From assembly GCA_902761275.1 (NCBI GenBank), contig CACWJS010000007.1, positions 1 to 38,958 of the forward strand: DNA of 38,958 nt. Direction: 5' to 3'. The position numbers were made by a program, and so were the translations under genes. Below are positions 572 through 20,249 of this stretch, one piece after another (the first letter of the stretch is position 1; the number at the start of each line of letters is the position of its first letter). The notes under the pieces were generated by a model that did not search any database, was not told where the DNA came from, and saw only the letters and a list, made by a program, of their open reading frames with translations. Source of the stretch: an uncultured bacterium. Its GTDB lineage: Bacteria; Verrucomicrobiota; Kiritimatiellia; RFP12; UBA1067.

Positions 572-2038
572 ATGAACGCGTCTGCCGCGAGCGTGGAGAG
601 CTGGCTCGGGGCCCAGTCGTTTGGCGAGCAGCGCGTCGGGCTGCTCGTGCGCGGCGAGATCGTTGACGAATGGCGCGTAGAAGCGTATCTCGGGCGAGGG
701 CTTTCTGCTGAAGTATATCGCGTGACGAATGTCCGCTTCGGGCACGACGGCGCACTTAAGCTTCTTGTCGACGGTTCGCGCGGGCTTGCGGCGCGTTTCG
801 CCACCGAAGCCGACGCGCTTCGATTCCTTTCGCTTCGGGCGCTTCCGCGCTTCATGGGCGGCGGCACGTGCAAAGGTGCGCCATACTATGTAATGGAGTA
901 TCTCCAGCCGCTGCCCGACCCGATGCCGCGACGCGAAGTGCCGCGCTTCATGAACAGGGTGGCGAAGGCGGTCCACACGCTTCACGATGCGGGCTACATC
1001 CATCGCGACTTGAAGCCCGGCAACATCTTGAGGCGCGCGAACGGAGAGCCGGTTCTCATCGATCTCGGGCTCGTCAAGCGACGCGGCACGATGGTGTCTG
1101 ACCCGATAGTGCGCCATGGCCGCGGCATATCGATCATCGACGGAAAGCCCGTTGGCGTCGGGACTCTCGACTATGCTGCGCCCGAGCAGCTCTTGAAGGG
1201 CGAGGCGTCGGTGCAGAGCGATGTCTTTGCGCTTGGGAAGATTCTCCGCGCGCTCTACGAGGGACGCCCGCCTGCGAGCGTGAAGCCGATCATTCGCAAG
1301 GCGACGCGCGAACTTCCTGGCGACCGCTATGAGTCGGCCGATGCTTTCGCTGCAGCGCTTCGCCATCGCAACTACTTCCGCTCTTTCGTTGGCGTCTTAC
1401 TGCTTGTCGCAGTTGTTGCGGGACTCGTCGCGCTTGGACACATCGATGACTTGCGCCGCTGGGCGGGAAAGCGATTTAACGCGCCGCCCCGCGTCCTCAC
1501 TGTTGCAAAGGCGCACGATGAGTCCTACGCCGCGTATTTCGTGCGCCTCAAGCAGCTTGCAGCCGATGGAAGTCCGGTGGCACAATGCGCACTTGCCGAG
1601 GCGTATATGTACGGACAGGGAACGGCGACAAATCTTGAGGAAGCTGTCCGCTGGTATCGCACTGCGGCCGCGGCGGGCAACTCCGACGCGCAGGCGTCGC
1701 TCGGGCTTTGCCTACTGCGCGGCTGGGGCTGTGAGAAGGACATCGATGGGGCGATAGTGTGGTACACTCGCGCTGCGGAGCAGAAGAACCTTTCCGCGAT
1801 GAACGACCTTGCGTTCTGCCGACTTCACGGCATAGGCGTCGAGAAGGACTCAGAGGGCGGCTTTGCCCTTGCGCTCGAAGCCGCGAAGAGCGGTCACGCT
1901 CCCGCGCAGGCGCTCGTCGGCGAATGCTACCTCGAGGGCATCGGCGTCGAGCAGGACATCGCCTCCGCCGAGACGTGGCTCTACCGCGCCGCACGTCTCG
2001 GCAACAAGCGCGCAAAGGCGCTCCTCGAATCACGCTGA
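572..2038 (+). CDS. Membrane Ser/Thr protein kinase with C-terminal Sel1 repeats
   Basis: A 488-residue Hanks-type kinase. Residues 35-265 form the kinase domain: glycine-rich loop GRGLSAEVY (41-49), ATP-binding Lys63, catalytic loop HRDLKPGN (144-151), DLG in place of DFG (164-166) and APE (203-205). The catalytic residues are all present, so it should be active. A single hydrophobic segment (about 268-291) follows, then at least four Sel1/TPR-like repeats (about 330-486), likely outside the cytoplasm and probably binding protein or peptide. This cytoplasmic kinase, one membrane pass and exported sensor plan is typical of PVC bacteria. It is paralogous to the kinase at 18846. No sigma gene is adjacent here, but the sigma factor at 9728 (minus) is an orphan and could be its partner (inference). 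The ATG at 572 has only a weak, distant AAGGA upstream. Confidence 0.88.
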   Translation: MNASAASVESWLGAQSFGEQRVGLLVRGEIVDEWRVEAYLGRGLSAEVYRVTNVRFGHDGALKLLVDGSRGLAARFATEADALRFLSLRALPRFMGGGTCKGAPYYVMEYLQPLPDPMPRREVPRFMNRVAKAVHTLHDAGYIHRDLKPGNILRRANGEPVLIDLGLVKRRGTMVSDPIVRHGRGISIIDGKPVGVGTLDYAAPEQLLKGEASVQSDVFALGKILRALYEGRPPASVKPIIRKATRELPGDRYESADAFAAALRHRNYFRSFVGVLLLVAVVAGLVALGHIDDLRRWAGKRFNAPPRVLTVAKAHDESYAAYFVRLKQLAADGSPVAQCALAEAYMYGQGTATNLEEAVRWYRTAAAAGNSDAQASLGLCLLRGWGCEKDIDGAIVWYTRAAEQKNLSAMNDLAFCRLHGIGVEKDSEGGFALALEAAKSGHAPAQALVGECYLEGIGVEQDIASAETWLYRAARLGNKRAKALLESR

Positions 2039-4966: not shown

Positions 4967-6151
4967 ATGTCAAAGACTGTCAATTGCATAGTGTTCGGGG
5001 CGGCAATGGTCGCCGTGGGTTGGTTTGGAAGGCAGCTTGTGCCGACAGGCGCGCATTCGCGTTCGGCGAAAAGCGAAGAAGCCGTGCCGGTTGTCGTAAC
5101 GACGGCAAGGTCGGTGGTGTTCAATCCGCCGACGGAGTATGTCGGGCATGTCGAGCCGGCGGAGACAACGGACATCCTTCCTCAGATCGACGGCTACATC
5201 AAGAAGGTATGCTTTGACGAAGGCGCGAAAGTCTCCACCGGCGACCTCCTCTTTGAGATAGACCAGGAGCAGTACCTCGCCTCGCGCAATCTGCGCTATT
5301 CGGAGGTTAGGAGCGCCGAAGCAAAGGTCGAGGTGGCCAAGTCGGACTTGGAACGCGCCGAGCGCTACTACCGCCGCCTGGCCGCCGCAGACGACCGCGG
5401 CATTACGGCGACCGAGCTGGACAACGCGGAAATGGCGCTCTCGTCCGCCAAGGCCACGCTCAATTCGGCAGTTGCCGCCGTCGAGCAGGCGAAGGCCGCC
5501 GCCGCGATAGCCGACTTTAATCTGAAGCACACCAAGGTGTTCTCGCCAATGTCCGGGCGAATCGGCAGGGCTTTCCACCACGTCGGCGACTACGTCTCGC
5601 CTTCCAAGTCCGCGCTGGCGCGCGTCGTGAAGCTCGATCCTATACGCGTCGTCTTTCCGATAACGGACCGCGACTACGACGCCTGGCAGTCCGCCGCCGA
5701 GCGCCGCGGCACGGAGCTAAACGCCTCGCGCCGCTTCCGCATACGGCTGCCCAACGGCGAGGAGTACGCGGAGCGCGGATCCATTGAGTTCGGCGACAAC
5801 GAGATGAGCCGCGAGACGGGGACTCTTGTGATGTACGTTTCGTTCCCGAACCCCTCCGGGCGGCTCGTCCCCAACGCGTTCGTGAGGGTTCTTTCCGACG
5901 AGGCGAATCCGCCGCGCGCGCTTGCGGTGCCGTCGGGAGCCGTTGTGCCGTGTGACGACGGCGTGCGCATATGGACCGTAGATGGCGAGAACAAGGCGCG
6001 CTCTGTCTTGGTGGAGACGGGAAAGACCTGGAACGGGGCGACGCTCGTCAAGTCGGGGCTTTCCGAAGGTGACAGGATCGTCTGCTCCGGAGCTTTCAAG
6101 CTCAAGGAAGGAATGGCGGTCGTCTGCCGCGAGGAGAACGAGGTCAGATGA
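4967..6151 (+). CDS. RND efflux periplasmic adaptor (membrane fusion protein)
   Basis: A 394-residue AcrA/MexA-type adaptor that would link an inner-membrane RND permease to an outer-membrane channel. It has an N-terminal membrane anchor (about 5-24, no lipobox), the first lipoyl half ending in EGAKVSTGDLLFEID (about 84-98), an alpha-helical hairpin of Ala/Glu-rich coiled coil (about 100-185), the second lipoyl half with FSPMSGRIGRAFHHVGDYV, then beta-barrel and membrane-proximal domains. The family match is clear. The stop overlaps the permease start by 4 nt (ATGA), so the pair is translationally coupled. No TolC-like gene follows, so an outer-membrane channel would have to be encoded elsewhere. 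Confidence 0.9.
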   Translation: MSKTVNCIVFGAAMVAVGWFGRQLVPTGAHSRSAKSEEAVPVVVTTARSVVFNPPTEYVGHVEPAETTDILPQIDGYIKKVCFDEGAKVSTGDLLFEIDQEQYLASRNLRYSEVRSAEAKVEVAKSDLERAERYYRRLAAADDRGITATELDNAEMALSSAKATLNSAVAAVEQAKAAAAIADFNLKHTKVFSPMSGRIGRAFHHVGDYVSPSKSALARVVKLDPIRVVFPITDRDYDAWQSAAERRGTELNASRRFRIRLPNGEEYAERGSIEFGDNEMSRETGTLVMYVSFPNPSGRLVPNAFVRVLSDEANPPRALAVPSGAVVPCDDGVRIWTVDGENKARSVLVETGKTWNGATLVKSGLSEGDRIVCSGAFKLKEGMAVVCREENEVR

Positions 6152-9126
6152 ACGCGGTCGAACTGCTCGTCCGGCGTCCATACTTTGCGATTGCCGTTGT
6201 TCTTCTGTCGGTCGTCGTCGCCGCGATCTCGTTCCCAAGGGCGCCCGTGTCGCTCTACCCGAACGTCGCGCGCCCAGCGATATCCGTGTCGTGCACCTAC
6301 CCCGGCGCGAATGCGCGCGAGGTGATGAACACCGTCGCCGGGCCCATCGAGGAGAAGGTGAACGGCGTCGAGGGCATGAGCCGCATGACAAGCTCGTGCT
6401 CTGACACGGGCGCCTATGCGCTGACCGTCTACTTCAACGTCGGCGTCGATCGCGACATGGCGCTCACAAAGGTGCAGAGCAAGGTTCAGCAGGCGCTTTC
6501 GCTTTTGCCGCAGGAAGTCAAGAACACTGGCGTGACGGTAGAGTCCGGCTCGACGGAGGAGCTGGGGCTCCTGACGCTGCGCTCCGCCGGTGGCAAGCTC
6601 GCGCGCGAGCAGGTCGTAGACTATGCCTATGGAGTCGTCAACCCAGCGATTCTTCGTGTCCCCGGCGTCGGCAGCTCTACTGTAAAGGACAACAAGGTCG
6701 CGATGCGCATCTGGCTCGACGCGAACAAGATGGCCTCGCACGGCATCACGTCGGAGGAGGTCGTCTCCGCGATCAAGTCGCAGAACGTCCAGGCGTCTCT
6801 CGGCAGCGTCGGCGCAAGCCCGACCGAAGAGCCGGGATGCCGCGTCGTGTCCCTGATCTCAAGGGGGCGTCTTGACACGGCGGAGGACTTTGAAAAGATC
6901 GTCGTCCGCACCGAAGGACGCGGCGGGCTCGTTCGGCTTGGCGACATCGCTCGTGTCGACAAGGGGCTCCAGGGCTATTCCTACGCCGCGTTATACGACG
7001 AGACCCCGGCGGTGTTTATACGCATAGTCAAGCTTCCCGGCATCGACGTGCGCAAGACGATGAAGCTCATAAAGGCGGAGTTGAAGAAGCTTGAACCGTC
7101 CTTCCCCGGCGACCTCGCCTGGGACATGACTTACGACACGACGCTCTACATGGACGCCGCGCTCGGTTCCGTCGTCAGGTCGCTTGTGCTTGCCTTCGCG
7201 CTGGCCGTCCTCGTCGCGGCGCTTTTCCTGCGGTCCGCGAAGTGGGCACTGCTCGTGGCGGTGTCGTCGGCTGTGCCATTGGCGATCGCGTTTTCCGTTC
7301 TTGTCGCCGCGGGCTGCTTCCTGAGCTTGATCTCGCTTTATGCGTTTATCGTCGCAACCGGTGTCTCGTTCGCGTTTTCGGCTTTCATGGCCTCGCGCAT
7401 CCGCGCCCTTGCGGGAGAGGGGATGGATCAGAGCGCTGCCGTGGTTTCGGCTGCGGGACGCTACGCGCCGCCCGTATGCGCCGCCGCCATTGCTATTGCG
7501 CTCGCCATGGTGCCAGTGGCGATGGTCGACGGGTTGCAGGGCGTCGTCTACCGCCAGTTCTCGCTTGTGCTCGCCGCTGCCGCGCTTGCGTCTGTGCTGG
7601 CGGCGGTCGTGATAGTACCGGCTTTTGCCGCGGTTATTCCAGTTCGGACGAAGCCGTGCGTCAGTTCGTCAGAGTCGCGGCAGGCGCTTCTCGCACCGGC
7701 AATCTTGTATATTGCGCTTGCGGCCTGCGCCGTCGCTGCGTGGGGAATCGGGAAGGGGCTTCCCGGCGAGTTCATCCCCGCTGAGGACATCGGCGAAATC
7801 GTCGTGGACTGCAAGATGGCGGAGGGAACTTCCATGCCGGTCACGGCCGACGTGATGCGCAGCATATACAGAAGGGTGCGCGACATCGGCGGCATAGAGA
7901 AGTCGACGACGCTTCTTGGCGAGAGCATCGTCAGCGGATACGGCGAAAACAACGCCAAGATGTATCTCGTTCTCAAGGACTGGGCAAAGCGCGACAAGTC
8001 GATGTTCGAAATCGCAAAGGAAATCGAGAAGGCCGTCGTCGACATTCCTGCGGCACAGGTCTTCACAATCTGCCCTCCGCCAATGCAGGGGCAGGGCAAC
8101 CAGGGTGGGCTGACAGTCCTTGTGCAGTCGATGGAGGATGCTGATCCTGTCCGCTTCGCCAACGAGATGCAGAAGTTTTGCGCCGCCCTTGCGCGTTCGC
8201 CGCTGGCGGACAGCGCCAACTGCGGAACCGTCGCCGACGTGCCCCACCTGCGCGTACACGTCGACCGCGAGAAGTGCGAGCTGATGCAGGTGCCGATGCT
8301 GTCGCTTTACACGACGCTCCAGCACGCGCTTGGCTCTGTGTACGTCAACGACGTGAACCTCGGCACCCAGGTGAACCGCGTAACTGTGATGTCAGACTGG
8401 TCCGCGCGCTCGTCGGCCGATCGCGTCGGCGATCTCTACGTTCGCTCAAAGACGGGGGATATGGTGCCGGTCGGCGCGCTTGTGACGTTCAGCGAGGAAC
8501 TTGGCGTTCGCGACTGCTACCGCTGCAACCAGTATCTCTACGCGACTTGCCAGTTCCTGCCGAAGGAGGGCGTTGCGTCTTCCGAGGCGATCGAGGAAGT
8601 GCGGCGGATTTCCGCGGCGAATCTGCCGCGCGGCTACGTCCAGGACTGGAGCGGGCTCATCTACGAGCAGTTCCAGAGTAGAGGGGACACGGGGCTTCTC
8701 ATGGGGCTCTCCGTGCTTGCCGTGTATCTTGTGTTGATGGTGATGTCTGGTTCGCTCGTCCGCCCGTTAGCGTGCCTTGTGCCGGCCGCGGCCGCGACGC
8801 TTGGCGCCGTAGTGCTTCATCTGGTGACCGGGGTTCCCATCTCGCTCTACTCACAGTTCTCGATGCTGCTGCTTGTAGTGACTTGCTCGGCTTTTGCGAT
8901 GCTTGCAGATTCGCGTGACGGCATGGCAGGCCGCGTCTTCCTGCCGCTTCTTATCGCCATTTCCTTCCTTCCGCTTGCGCTGTCGTCTGGGGCGGGCGGA
9001 GCGGGCAGCCGCTCGATGGGCATCACCTTGCTTGGCGGCTTCGCGTTCTTTGCGCTTGTCCGCGCCATGGCCGGTGGTCTCGGCCAGGAACAACGCGATC
9101 ACGCAATGTCATCCGCATCGGCTTGA
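6148..9126 (+). CDS. RND-family permease, proton-relay residues missing
   Basis: A 992-residue inner-membrane protein of the HAE-1/AcrB type. The N-terminus (RRPYFAIAVVLLSVVVAA, then APVSLYPNVARPAISVSCTY) and the YRQFSLVLAAAALASVL block are typical, and two large periplasmic loops separate the transmembrane clusters; twelve helices are likely. In AcrB, Asp407 and Asp408 (TM4), Lys940 (TM10) and Arg971 (TM11) carry the protons. Aligned by eye, the TM4 segment reads ATGVSFAFSAFMA, giving Ala409 and Phe410 for the two Asp, TM10 reads TCSAFAMLADSRD with Phe916 for Lys, and the Arg position reads Leu. The open reading frame is full and undisturbed, so this is not simple decay. It may work with a second, energised RND subunit or have another role. 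It is about 50 residues shorter than AcrB, mainly near TM10-11. Confidence 0.85.
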   Translation: MNAVELLVRRPYFAIAVVLLSVVVAAISFPRAPVSLYPNVARPAISVSCTYPGANAREVMNTVAGPIEEKVNGVEGMSRMTSSCSDTGAYALTVYFNVGVDRDMALTKVQSKVQQALSLLPQEVKNTGVTVESGSTEELGLLTLRSAGGKLAREQVVDYAYGVVNPAILRVPGVGSSTVKDNKVAMRIWLDANKMASHGITSEEVVSAIKSQNVQASLGSVGASPTEEPGCRVVSLISRGRLDTAEDFEKIVVRTEGRGGLVRLGDIARVDKGLQGYSYAALYDETPAVFIRIVKLPGIDVRKTMKLIKAELKKLEPSFPGDLAWDMTYDTTLYMDAALGSVVRSLVLAFALAVLVAALFLRSAKWALLVAVSSAVPLAIAFSVLVAAGCFLSLISLYAFIVATGVSFAFSAFMASRIRALAGEGMDQSAAVVSAAGRYAPPVCAAAIAIALAMVPVAMVDGLQGVVYRQFSLVLAAAALASVLAAVVIVPAFAAVIPVRTKPCVSSSESRQALLAPAILYIALAACAVAAWGIGKGLPGEFIPAEDIGEIVVDCKMAEGTSMPVTADVMRSIYRRVRDIGGIEKSTTLLGESIVSGYGENNAKMYLVLKDWAKRDKSMFEIAKEIEKAVVDIPAAQVFTICPPPMQGQGNQGGLTVLVQSMEDADPVRFANEMQKFCAALARSPLADSANCGTVADVPHLRVHVDREKCELMQVPMLSLYTTLQHALGSVYVNDVNLGTQVNRVTVMSDWSARSSADRVGDLYVRSKTGDMVPVGALVTFSEELGVRDCYRCNQYLYATCQFLPKEGVASSEAIEEVRRISAANLPRGYVQDWSGLIYEQFQSRGDTGLLMGLSVLAVYLVLMVMSGSLVRPLACLVPAAAATLGAVVLHLVTGVPISLYSQFSMLLLVVTCSAFAMLADSRDGMAGRVFLPLLIAISFLPLALSSGAGGAGSRSMGITLLGGFAFFALVRAMAGGLGQEQRDHAMSSASA

Positions 9127-9137
9127 TGCGAATTGGA

Positions 9138-9728
9138 CTAGTATTTTTCGTCGGTCATCGCTGCGACGAGGGCTGAGAGTCGTTGGACCATGCGTCGCTT
9201 GATCTGGTCGACGTTGGCGCGCGCGAGGCCGAACGCCGCGGCGACTTCGGCTGGCGGCTCGTGCATCAGCGCCACGTGGCGAAAGACTTCGCGGGCGCGC
9301 GCGTTCACCGATTCGTCGGAGAGCAGCTGCTCGAGCGCCGCGTTCATCGCCGCGAGCTTCCAGTCCTCCGGCTCTTCGTGGTTGCGCTCGGTTGATGGAT
9401 TTTCCAGCTCTGCAAGCCGGTCACGCTTGCCGCTTTCCCGTGCCTCGCGCCTCAGGGCGTCTTCGGCCTTGTGCTTTAGTATGCCTGTAAGGTAGTTGTG
9501 GAAGTGTCCGTTGCGGTCGGGAGTATAGTGGTAGTCTGGCATGCGCCGCGTTAGCGCGACCATCGTCTCCTGAATCGCGTCGTCTGCGTCGACCGACGGG
9601 AAGCGCGACTGTAGAAACGAGCGCATCGGCTGCTCGTAGATGCGGAAGAACTCGGCCCAGCGGGCGTTGTCTGTTCCGCTGGCGAGACCCTTGAGCAGAG
9701 TTATCGATGTGACCGGTGCGTTCGCCAT
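9138..9728 (-). CDS. ECF-like sigma-70 family RNA polymerase sigma factor
   Basis: A 196-residue sigma factor with regions 2 and 4 only. Region 2 contains DADDAIQETMVAL and the block GHFHNYLTGILKHKAEDAL. The C-terminal region 4 helix-turn-helix is EPPAEVAAAFGLARANVDQIKRRMVQRL. It should recruit RNA polymerase to alternative promoters. The start MANAPVTS at 9728 was preferred over the longer frame because a TGG-TAGAAT box lies just upstream and because its paralogue at 18263 begins MANVPETS and is also 196 residues. The gene converges on the RND permease with an 11-nt gap. No anti-sigma or kinase gene is adjacent. Regulation by a distant kinase, perhaps the one at 572, is inference. Confidence 0.83.
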   Translation of the reverse strand: MANAPVTSITLLKGLASGTDNARWAEFFRIYEQPMRSFLQSRFPSVDADDAIQETMVALTRRMPDYHYTPDRNGHFHNYLTGILKHKAEDALRREARESGKRDRLAELENPSTERNHEEPEDWKLAAMNAALEQLLSDESVNARAREVFRHVALMHEPPAEVAAAFGLARANVDQIKRRMVQRLSALVAAMTDEKY

Positions 9729-9735
9729 GCCGCGT

Positions 9736-9744
9736 ATTCTACCA
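9736..9744 (-). promoter_or_regulatory. Extended -10 promoter of the minus-strand sigma gene
   Basis: On the minus strand TTTGG is followed by TAGAAT. The predicted start at 9729 leaves a 1-nt leader before ATG 9728. It has the same layout as the promoters at 12634, 24762, 33124 and 34811. Confidence 0.55.
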
Positions 9745-9809
9745 AATGGCCGCGCACGATTGTTGAAAAATACTGAAATCAAGTTGCTTCACCCACGCGA
9801 CGGAAAATT

Positions 9810-18262: not shown

Positions 18263-18853
18263 ATGGCGAATGTACCAGAGACTTCTACGACACTTTTGAG
18301 AAACGTCAGGGACGCGGAGCATCCGCGCTGGCCCGAGTTCGTCGCGAAGTACCGTCCGATGATGGAGGCATACCTCAATGCGCATTTTCCGACATTGGAG
18401 GCGGACGACGTAATCCAGGAGACTTTCGCCGCGCTCTGCGCCATTCTGCCGGGCTACATCTACGATCCGGATGAGAAGGGGCACTTCCGCAACTACCTGA
18501 CGGGCATCCTTCGCAACAAGGCGCGGCGTGCGCTCTGCAAGAGTGGTCGCCAGGCAGAGATAAGCGACATGACCGGAGCTGGCTCTATGACCGCGCCGCA
18601 AAGCGTTGTTCAAGACGACGACCAATCCTGGCGCGAGGCCATCTTCGAAATCGCTATGCGTCGCTTTCTTTCCGATAAGGCCATCGCCGACCGCACAAAA
18701 CGTATCTTCGAGCGTACGGCGCTAAACGGCGAGTCTCCCGAATCCGTCGCCGCCTCGTTCATGATGACGCGCCACGCCGTCGACCAGGCAAAGAGCCGTG
18801 CGATGGCCCGTCTGCGCGAGCTTGTCAAGGAACTGGAGTCCGTCTATGGATGA
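18263..18853 (+). CDS. ECF-like sigma factor, paralogue of the one at 9138-9728
   Basis: A 196-residue sigma factor with region 2 (LEADDVIQETFAAL, then GHFRNYLTGILRNKARRAL) and region 4 (ESVAASFMMTRHAVDQAKSRAMARLREL). The start MANVPETSTTLL at 18263 lies 2 nt after the Hsp33 stop. Length and the motifs DDVIQET and NYLTGIL match the minus-strand sigma factor closely, so the two are recent-to-moderate duplicates. Its end overlaps the kinase start by 8 nt, a strong sign that the two products work together. Kinase control of an ECF sigma by phosphorylation is known from other bacteria; that it happens here is inference. Confidence 0.84.
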   Translation: MANVPETSTTLLRNVRDAEHPRWPEFVAKYRPMMEAYLNAHFPTLEADDVIQETFAALCAILPGYIYDPDEKGHFRNYLTGILRNKARRALCKSGRQAEISDMTGAGSMTAPQSVVQDDDQSWREAIFEIAMRRFLSDKAIADRTKRIFERTALNGESPESVAASFMMTRHAVDQAKSRAMARLRELVKELESVYG

Positions 18854-20249
18854 GGATTCCATCTCGGCGATGTGTGCCGCGCACGGACCTGTCGCCTCCG
18901 CTTGTCGCTTTGCCGCTGGCACCATATTCGGCGACTGGCGGCTTACGGCGTTCATCGGTCGCGGCGGGAACGGCGAGGTATATTGCGCTGAGCACATTTC
19001 GCTCGGCACATCCGCCGCGCTCAAGGTGTTGGTGCGCGACGAGCCACGCGCAAAGGAGCGCTTCTTGTGTGAGGCGAAGCTGCTTTCGGAATTGAAGTCG
19101 GCGTCGTTTCCGCAATTCTATTCGTACGGCGAGGCGAACGGATGCCTATATCTCACGATGGAGCTGTTGGAGCCAGGCGAACTTCCATCTGGCGACCGAA
19201 ATGTCGCGCGCTTTCTTCTCTCGGTATGCGATGCCGTCGCCGAGCTTCATTCGCGAGGCTACATTCACCGCGACATCAAGCCATCCAACATTCTGTGGCG
19301 TACCGGGACAACGGGCGGCTCGCCCGTTGCAGTCCCCGTTCTCTCCGATCTTGGGCTTGCAAAGAAGATCGAGACTTCTAACCACCCAACCACCAAACTA
19401 CCAAACCACCTAACCACCATCGGCGTCGGCACTCCCGGCTATGGAGCTCCCGAGCAGATGGAGCGCGGCGAGGCGACAGTTGCGTCCGACATACACGCGC
19501 TCGGCGTCCTTGCAGATGCGTGCTTCGGCGGCAATCCGCCGCTCACGTGGGCGCGGATCATCCGCCGCGCCACGTCATCCATTCCCGCGCATCGCTATCC
19601 GTCCGTAGTCGCATTCGCAAGAGCAATTCGCCGCAGGAATTTGTTGCTTGGGGTTTCGGCATTCGTTGCGGTGATAGCGTTGTCTGGGCTATGCTTGTCG
19701 TGTTTTTATAGCTGGTGGACTCAAAGTGGCAGGGAAGTGTGGCGATGGAGGGCGCTTTGCGATTATGGGGAGATTGTGAGTGTATCCGGGATATGCGAGC
19801 CATTAGACGAAAGCCATCCAAAATATCCTGGAAGCATTGTTCGGTATGTTACAAACCGGGTTGACGGTACGATTCTTAATCTTCCCAAGGACACGCTTTC
19901 GTTTGCAAGACCGATTCTGCTTAAGCCGGGCGAATACCGCATAGTCGGTCCCGGGCGGCTTGACGCCGATCTGTCGGGGCCATCTAATGCAGTTGTCCGG
20001 TTGAAAGACTGCGTGTTGAACAATACGACATCCGTTCCATATCCGCAGAACGGCATTCATTATGTATTTGAGGGCGGGGCCTATCTCAATTTCGTGAACC
20101 TTGACAGGAACATTGAACACCGGCGATACATTCATTCGGATGGTAAGTCGCGCAATGCGCTTCGTTTCCGTGGACCGATGACGTTCAAGGAATTAGACGA
20201 AGAGCAGGCGCGCGAATACGAGCGTATGCTTCAACGCGATCTTCGGTGA
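18846..20249 (+). CDS. Membrane Ser/Thr protein kinase coupled to sigma factor, with repeat insertions
   Basis: A 467-residue Hanks-type kinase: GRGGNGEVY (38-46), Lys60 in AALKVL, HRDIKPSN (141-148), DLG (168-170), APE (201-203), one transmembrane segment (about 266-290) and a 175-residue exported domain. That domain contains GEYRIVGPGRLDADLSGPSNAVV, perhaps the start of a beta-helix, but I do not recognise it. The kinase core carries two unusual insertions: TGTTGGSPVAVP (153-164), encoded by a perfect palindrome between the catalytic loop and DLG, and ETSNHPTTKLPNHLTT (176-191), encoded by a tandem repeat inside the activation segment. Neither breaks the frame. The ATG at 18846 overlaps the sigma gene. 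The longer frame from 18798 lies within sigma coding sequence. Confidence 0.86.
   Translation: MDEDSISAMCAAHGPVASACRFAAGTIFGDWRLTAFIGRGGNGEVYCAEHISLGTSAALKVLVRDEPRAKERFLCEAKLLSELKSASFPQFYSYGEANGCLYLTMELLEPGELPSGDRNVARFLLSVCDAVAELHSRGYIHRDIKPSNILWRTGTTGGSPVAVPVLSDLGLAKKIETSNHPTTKLPNHLTTIGVGTPGYGAPEQMERGEATVASDIHALGVLADACFGGNPPLTWARIIRRATSSIPAHRYPSVVAFARAIRRRNLLLGVSAFVAVIALSGLCLSCFYSWWTQSGREVWRWRALCDYGEIVSVSGICEPLDESHPKYPGSIVRYVTNRVDGTILNLPKDTLSFARPILLKPGEYRIVGPGRLDADLSGPSNAVVRLKDCVLNNTTSVPYPQNGIHYVFEGGAYLNFVNLDRNIEHRRYIHSDGKSRNALRFRGPMTFKELDEEQAREYERMLQRDLR
19305..19336 (+). repeat. Palindromic element inside kinase gene (copy 1)
   Basis: Arms CAACGGGCG (19309-19317) and CGCCCGTTG (19321-19329) pair perfectly around a 3-nt loop; GGGA and TCCC extend the stem with a bulge. 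In frame it encodes TGTTGGSPVAV. A second copy lies at 23937-23973. Confidence 0.75.
19379..19418 (+). repeat. AACCACC-type tandem repeat inside kinase gene
   Basis: Five to six degenerate copies of an AACCACC/AAACTACC unit, period about 7-8, in frame within the activation segment of the kinase. Its composition differs sharply from flanking codons. Confidence 0.75.

What the first reader, a model, noticed from the sequence alone, without database searches (positions are those of the whole stretch)
6148..9126. Intact RND permease that has lost all four proton-relay residues
Seen: a full-length 992-codon frame coupled to its adaptor by ATGA. Aligned by eye with AcrB, the TM4 Asp pair is Ala409-Phe410 (7372-7380), the TM10 Lys is Phe916 (8893-8895) and the TM11 Arg is Leu. 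Known: these residues are required for proton-driven RND transport. Inference: this subunit cannot use protons alone; it may form a mixed trimer with an energised RND partner (mixed trimers are known, e.g. MdtB/MdtC), or act as a passive or sensory protein.
Basis: partly seen in the sequence, partly recalled or inferred. Interest (0 to 1): 0.7.

Follow-up and report, generated by a model that had tools for sequence, protein, structure and literature searches.

The report
Unpowered relatives of drug-efflux pumps
A family of efflux-pump proteins from animal-gut bacteria has lost the residues that let such pumps run on protons while the part outside the inner membrane stays strongly conserved, so they likely work as an unpowered, permanently docked piece of the cell envelope.

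Summary
The window encodes an intact 992-aa RND permease (6148-9126) overlapping its adaptor gene by ATGA. The TM4 Asp pair is Ala409-Phe410 and the TM10 Lys is Ala915 (not Phe916); the TM11 Arg is alignment-dependent. It is a clade, not one odd gene: the window protein and the 120 listed relatives (121 of 121) lack an ionisable residue at D407, D408 and K940; 120 relay-bearing relatives have D/D in 120 and K in 119. In the tree the relay-less rows form one group, consistent with one loss. I found the gene in 11 of 161 genomes of the order, all with full-relay RNDs elsewhere. dN/dS is 0.06-0.13. Constraint is inverted: membrane helices loose, periplasmic part tight. Two cytoplasmic-side segments are shortened, and three positions that are pocket Phe in AcrB are mostly charged. 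The permease tracks its adaptor. Best reading: an adaptor-RND pair that assembles but cannot cycle; published relay mutants of MtrD and AcrB still bind their partners, which predicts a latched, unpowered complex. A mixed trimer is less supported: no tandem permease, 30-39% identity to the genome's other RNDs. My paper searches listed no such natural family.

The parts
6148..9126 (+). relay-less RND permease, 992 aa
4967..6151 (+). RND periplasmic adaptor (membrane fusion protein), 394 aa, gene overlapping the permease by 4 bases
   Evidence: NCBIfam TIGR01730 216.4 bits, cut-off 94.9; directly upstream with a 4-base RTGA overlap in 8 of 8 loci holding both genes
7372..7377 (+). Ala409-Phe410, positions of AcrB D407-D408 (TM4)
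8890..8892 (+). Ala915, position of AcrB K940 (TM10)
8932..8934 (+). Arg929, start of TM11; possible counterpart of AcrB R971 if the TM11 gap is placed otherwise
   Evidence: aligned to R971; Gly925 is aligned to R971
8941..8943 (+). Leu932, position of AcrB T978 (TM11) in most alignments
   Evidence: Ile936
6781..6822 (+). conserved segment of the inter-protomer arm, residues 212-225
   Evidence: AcrB 210-223 columns, 10 of 14 invariant in 82 of 82 members; that this is the arm is recalled
6559..6561 (+). Glu138, column of AcrB pocket Phe136
   Evidence: acidic in 78 of 82 non-redundant members
6685..6687 (+). Lys180, column of AcrB pocket Phe178
   Evidence: K or R in 56 of 82
7921..7923 (+). 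Glu592, column of AcrB pocket Phe615
   Evidence: acidic in 70 of 82

Best explanation
The gene encodes a relay-less RND permease, co-inherited with its adaptor, that likely assembles as a homotrimer on that adaptor and would act as an unpowered, permanently docked envelope complex rather than as a proton-driven pump. Shown: the relay is absent in all 121 rows examined; the protein is under purifying selection; constraint has moved from the membrane engine to the periplasmic part; the arm segment and docking domain are conserved; the adaptor travels with it. Inferred: trimer formation, docking to an outer-membrane factor encoded elsewhere in the genome, and lack of cycling. In published relay mutants of MtrD the assembled complex is inferred to stay together and seal the channel, because dissociation rather than assembly needs proton flux; a natural relay-less RND would therefore be latched to its adaptor and channel, serving most likely as a static strut or plug, less likely as a passive path for a polar ligand.
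For: 121 of 121 rows lack an ionisable residue at D407/D408/K940; relay-bearing relatives have D 120/120, D 120/120, K 119/120. The relay-less rows form one group, SH-aLRT 100, stem 1.3 changes per site. dN/dS 0.132, 0.127, 0.057 to three orthologues; membrane helices 0.12-0.17. At matched 50-60% whole-protein identity: TM4 0.31 vs 0.87, TM5 0.40 vs 0.92, TM10 0.37 vs 0.85, all TM 0.37 vs 0.68; PN1 0.82 vs 0.61, PN2 0.62 vs 0.49, PC1 0.50 vs 0.38, DC 0.71 vs 0.66, periplasm 0.62 vs 0.52 (same direction with another, partly overlapping active set). Segments shortened: TM6-TM7 median 20 vs 36 residues, K940-T978 16 vs 37. Arm segment 10 of 14 invariant. 4-base overlap with the adaptor in 8 of 8 loci and Mantel r 0.91, p 1e-4. 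The adaptor keeps a hairpin-tip segment like that of adaptors of relay-bearing RNDs. Relay-mutant MtrD keeps its partner interactions and is inferred not to dissociate (PMC3664412, abstract and passages); AcrB D407A stays a trimer and binds AcrA and TolC (PMC3925222, passages).
Against: No experiment; oligomeric state and docking are not shown. No outer-membrane factor gene was found beside the pair; the own genome's OMF matches over cut-off lie on C144, beside a relay-bearing RND, and on C21. One locus of nine with upstream context (L035) lacks the adaptor. DN, which holds the arm, is slightly less conserved than in the active clade (0.55 vs 0.61). The matched-identity contrast is relative: looser helices force a tighter rest. 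The MtrD mutants were charge swaps (K, K, E), not the neutral residues seen here. A predicted lock in the open (O) state was tested and not supported. The Mantel test has 8 genomes, three of them close to one another, and one partial permease.
Confidence: 0.48

Rival explanations
1. Mixed trimer: the relay-less subunit joins a relay-bearing RND of the same cell, which supplies the energy, as MdtB is thought to do for MdtC.
For: All 11 genomes found with the gene carry at least one full-relay RND. The arm segment and PN1 are conserved and similar between the two kinds (dead versus active identity: PN1 0.56, DC 0.62). MdtB2C precedent (PMC4107485, passages).
Against: No tandem permease at the loci; known heterotrimers are tandem pairs with about 50% identity, confined to one clade (PMC10872679, passages), whereas here the genome's other RNDs are 30-39% identical. 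The relay-less permease follows its adaptor (r 0.91) better than the genome's L002-type RND (r 0.55). A linked AcrB trimer loses most activity when one protomer is disabled (PMC3925222, passage). L002-type RNDs are also in most genus members without the gene (about 43 of 51, read by eye from the rows, relay not checked in each), so presence is not specific.
Confidence: 0.2
2. Receptor: the periplasmic pocket, now charged, binds a ligand and signals through the adaptor or the membrane part, as sterol-sensing RND relatives are thought to do (recalled).
For: Columns of AcrB F136/F178/F615 are acidic in 78, basic in 56 and acidic in 70 of 82 members, with exactly E/K/E in 40 of 82; PN2 and PC1 are more conserved than in active relatives at matched identity.
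Against: No signalling gene is a shared neighbour at the loci examined. The charged pocket may simply be a salt-bridge plug.
Confidence: 0.16
3. Active pump with another ion path, relying on other membrane residues.
For: A TM10 column (AcrB Q928) is Arg in 69 of 121 and Arg is common at the Arg929 column at the start of TM11 (59 of 82).
Against: No column of the membrane core with 30% or more charged residues is acidic in the 121 rows; helices are the least conserved part.
Confidence: 0.06
4. Decaying gene or assembly artefact.
For: The stem branch is long (1.3 changes per site).
Against: 120 listed relatives of 949-1010 aa, records from several assembly projects, dN/dS 0.06-0.13.
Confidence: 0.02

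Closest known systems
HAE-1 RND permeases (AcrB, CmeB, OqxB type)
   Different: No D407/D408/K940/T978 counterparts, shortened TM6-TM7 and TM10-TM11 segments, charged pocket columns, below the curated cut-offs of the NCBIfam RND models matched
Relay-bearing Kiritimatiellae RNDs (L037, L057/L060 type)
   Same: Nearest relatives in the tree (set with SH-aLRT 100); adaptor upstream at L037 and L060, adaptors with the same longer hairpin
   Different: Full relay D-D-K-R-T; 38-40% identity
MdtBC / MuxBC / SmeJK heterotrimeric RNDs
   Same: Idea of RND subunits with unequal energising roles
   Different: Those are tandem gene pairs with about 50% identity (PMC10872679, passages); here a single permease gene
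Laboratory relay mutants MtrD D405K/D406K/K948E and AcrB D407A
   Same: Same engine residues changed; partner binding kept, transport lost (PMC3664412, PMC3925222, passages)
   Different: Engineered and without efflux function; here a natural, selected family with neutral residues

Membership tests
RND superfamily, ACR_tran (PF00873) | Pfam gathering score | tested here: met
   568.6 bits against 28
RND superfamily, ACR_tran (PF00873) | 12 membrane helices and two large periplasmic loops, RND fold | tested here: met
HAE-1 proton-drug antiporters | Asp-Asp in TM4 and Lys in TM10 | tested here: not met
   0 of 121
HAE-1 proton-drug antiporters | NCBIfam subfamily cut-off (TIGR00915, NF000282) | tested here: not met
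   559.9 of 940.35 and 637.8 of 1250 bits
HAE-1 proton-drug antiporters | drug transport driven by proton flux | not testable with these tools
   needs an assay
Tripartite RND assembly | adaptor encoded with the permease | tested here: met
   8 of 9 loci with upstream context, 4-base overlap in 8 of 8
Tripartite RND assembly | outer-membrane factor in the operon | tested here: not met
   none seen beside the pair by similarity to the L002-type OMF and by the neighbours scanned; own-genome OMF matches over cut-off lie on C144 and C21; some known systems use an OMF encoded elsewhere (PMC10872679, passage)
MdtBC-type heterotrimer | tandem pair of permease genes, about 50% identical | tested here: not met
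   definition from PMC10872679 passages
MdtBC-type heterotrimer | physical mixed trimer | not testable with these tools
   no complex prediction offered

The most novel reading that the evidence does not exclude
A natural class of unpowered RND proteins ('RND struts'): selection removed the proton engine once and then kept the porter-docking part and its adaptor as a permanently latched trans-envelope complex, the pump equivalent of a pseudoenzyme.
Probability: 0.42. Interest if true: 0.78.

Novelty: new variant of a known kind. Interest (0 to 1): 0.6.

Why it matters
RND pumps are seen as proton-driven machines. A selected family that keeps the periplasmic machine and drops the engine would show that an RND-adaptor assembly can have a job that needs no transport energy. 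It offers a natural test of which RND parts serve assembly and which serve energy: the columns that stay fixed when the engine is gone. It also warns that Pfam-based counts of efflux pumps include proteins that very likely cannot pump.

Tried and rejected
Lock in the open (O) state: the relay-less model matched AdeB OOO best, and 24 of the 50 rows shown were chain C (that chain C is the O protomer in AcrB crystals is recalled). The control model of a relay-bearing relative had AdeB OOO at rank 12 and chain C in 19 of 50 rows. Not specific enough; dropped.

Specific co-occurrence with one active RND: an L002-type RND, whole or in pieces, is in 11 of 11 genomes found with the gene (G108 only as two contig-end fragments), but also in about 43 of 51 other genus members (read by eye). 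Not informative.

Functional clue from neighbours: flanking genes differ from locus to locus, such as gyrase A, GH20, amidase, AMP-binding enzyme, saccharopine dehydrogenase, pseudouridine synthase. No shared partner beyond the adaptor was seen.

First extraction of loci read several minus-strand loci on the wrong strand; the loci rows of that call are void and were redone. Its D407/D408/K940 counts for the 121 proteins are the same as later; its R971 and T978 columns were misaligned.

Viral fold library: no match at E 0.001 or below.

Literature: the listings (titles and starts of abstracts) showed no report of a naturally relay-less HAE-1 family; one search returned nothing. Only open-licence papers are held. 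Passages were read in five papers (PMC8277102, PMC4107485, PMC3664412, PMC3925222, PMC10872679); none was read whole.

Full report
Observation. The frame 6148-9126 is open for 992 codons and is an RND permease by Pfam (568.6 bits, profile positions 3-926 of 1021). Its start overlaps the stop of the adaptor gene 4967-6151 by ATGA; the adaptor scores 216.4 bits against TIGR01730. T978 falls on Leu932 or Ile936. The Arg of TM11 cannot be settled by sequence: R971 falls on Gly925 or on Arg929, because TM11 and the segment before it are shortened.

A clade. The first protein search listed the best 120 of 3060 hits, 46-98% identical. With the window protein these are 121 rows, 82 after removing those 90% or more identical. 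None of the 121 has D, E, K, R or H at the D407, D408 or K940 columns, and none has Thr at the T978 column. A second search, seeded with a relay-bearing relative (L060), listed 120 of 8000 hits: D 120/120, D 120/120, K 119/120, R 120/120, T 120/120. In a tree of 29 rows the 12 relay-less rows are one side of a branch with SH-aLRT 100 and a stem of 1.3 changes per site, inside a set (SH-aLRT 100) that also holds the relay-bearing L037 and L057 types. The tree is a quick one without bootstrap, AcrB and L001 are long branches in it, and which of the two types is closest is not resolved.

Distribution. Within the order, 17 of 161 genomes passed E 1e-300; 10 of these hold the relay-less form and 7 the relay-bearing sister form (relay of the 7 read). 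An eleventh genome (G008) holds it in two pieces around a run of N. Relay state was read in all 11, in G008 for TM4 only. In named records, 10 of the 12 loci found belong to the clade and 2 (L057, L060) bear the relay; titles say Kiritimatiellae, Verrucomicrobia or uncultured bacterium for the 10, three of them with yak caecum, water deer rectum or goat ileum. In a sample of 387 genomes of the phylum only 3 relay-less matches, all of the window's genus, and one sister-type match passed E 1e-290. All 11 genomes found with the gene carry at least one RND with D-D-K-R-T elsewhere.

Selection. Nei-Gojobori dN/dS of the permease is 0.132, 0.127 and 0.057 against G051, G003 and G030 (dS 0.46, 0.44, 1.27; the last is near saturation). 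In the membrane helices, with approximate limits, it is 0.162, 0.168 and 0.124. The adaptor gives 0.187 and 0.168. Four more distant members among themselves give 0.15-0.24 at dS 0.94-1.53.

Inverted constraint. For pairs of similar overall divergence (50-60% identity; 600 sampled of 729 relay-less and 600 of 1778 relay-bearing pairs), regional identity, relay-less then relay-bearing, is: TM4 0.31/0.87, TM5 0.40/0.92, TM6 0.45/0.80, TM7 0.20/0.19, TM8 0.48/0.82, TM10 0.37/0.85, TM12 0.44/0.46, all membrane helices 0.37/0.68; PN1 0.82/0.61, PN2 0.62/0.49, DN 0.55/0.61, PC1 0.50/0.38, PC2 0.52/0.38, DC 0.71/0.66, whole periplasm 0.62/0.52. TM7 and TM12 thus do not differ. Another, partly overlapping relay-bearing set gave the same picture (400 sampled of 717 relay-less pairs, 96 relay-bearing pairs). 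Region limits in AcrB numbering are recalled. Because pairs were matched on overall identity, looser helices imply a tighter rest; the result is a shift of constraint, not an absolute rise. In the core of the membrane helices only two columns are charged in 30% or more of the relay-less rows, and neither is acidic; the relay-bearing set (118 rows) has D407, D408, K940 and a TM12 column.

Other changes. The TM6-TM7 segment, which holds a helix (residues 522-547) in the relay-bearing model, has a median of 20 residues against 36; the stretch from after K940 to before T978 has 16 against 37. The columns of AcrB pocket residues F136, F178 and F615 are acidic in 78 of 82, basic in 56 of 82 and acidic in 70 of 82; relay-bearing relatives are mixed there, mainly Gln/Phe/Met, Tyr/His and Phe/His/Asn. 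Exactly E/K/E is found in 40 of 82. Ten of the 14 positions 212-225, in the inter-protomer arm, are invariant. Three periplasmic cysteines (49, 84, 710) are in 82 of 82, and in 10, 16 and 8 of 23 relay-bearing rows.

Operon. Permease and adaptor overlap by four bases (ATGA or GTGA) in 8 of 8 loci that hold both. In a ninth locus (L035) the upstream gene is a glycoside hydrolase; in L030 and L053 the contig ends. Other neighbours are not shared. Permease distances follow adaptor distances (Mantel r 0.91, p 1e-4, 8 genomes) more closely than those of the genome's L002-type RND (r 0.55, p 0.009). Three of the 8 are close to one another, the G008 permease is partial, and some L002-type sequences are partial or hold stops. 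The adaptor hairpin tip resembles that of relay-bearing systems; its hairpin is longer by two blocks of seven columns than in the three L002-type adaptors aligned, as in two adaptors of the sister type.

Mechanism. In AcrB, replacing one of these residues abolishes extrusion (PMC8277102, passages). Relay-mutant MtrD still binds its partner and is inferred not to dissociate, sealing the channel, so that energy is needed for dissociation and export but not assembly (PMC3664412, abstract and passages). AcrB D407A remains a trimer that interacts with AcrA and TolC (PMC3925222, passages). From these I infer that the natural relay-less permease forms a stable, non-cycling complex on its adaptor. Whether it then serves as strut, plug, passive path or ligand-bound receptor is not decided; strut or plug is my first choice, because the MtrD mutants seal the channel.

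Novelty. The listings of my paper searches showed no natural relay-less HAE-1 family; they cover open-licence papers only. Known heterotrimers are tandem pairs of one clade (PMC10872679, passages). The finding is a new, conserved variant within the RND superfamily, not a new kind of fold.

Noticed in passing
P0233: A single 1544-aa protein holds a full ACR_tran domain (15-1037) and an outer-membrane factor domain (best OEP stretch 1361-1537): an RND permease fused to an outer-membrane channel protein. Open frames of 1512-1627 aa around RND matches in G038, G066, G069, G073 and G074 may be the same.
   Followed up: partly
own genome contigs C109 and C144 (L027, L026): Two RND gene pieces overlap with 88.6% DNA identity over 913 bases: two copies or two strains in the assembly, not one split gene.
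   Followed up: partly
window 6292-6294, 6397-6399, 8275-8277: Three periplasmic cysteines (49, 84, 710) are invariant in 82 of 82 relay-less members and mixed in relay-bearing relatives; a disulfide between 49 and 84 is possible but untested.
   Followed up: partly
window 9138-9782, minus strand: A convergent sigma-70 region 2 protein follows the permease gene.
   Followed up: no
window 572-2038 and 18798-20249: Two protein-kinase-domain genes, the first with Sel1 repeats.
   Followed up: no
G013:C203 and G001:C3: L002-type RND genes with in-frame stops or split matches in genomes that hold the relay-less gene; may be assembly errors or real breaks.
   Followed up: no
L107, L114, L115, L117, L118: More distant RNDs of the same genomes carry one TM4 Asp only (D-A, D-S or D-N in place of D-D).
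   Followed up: no
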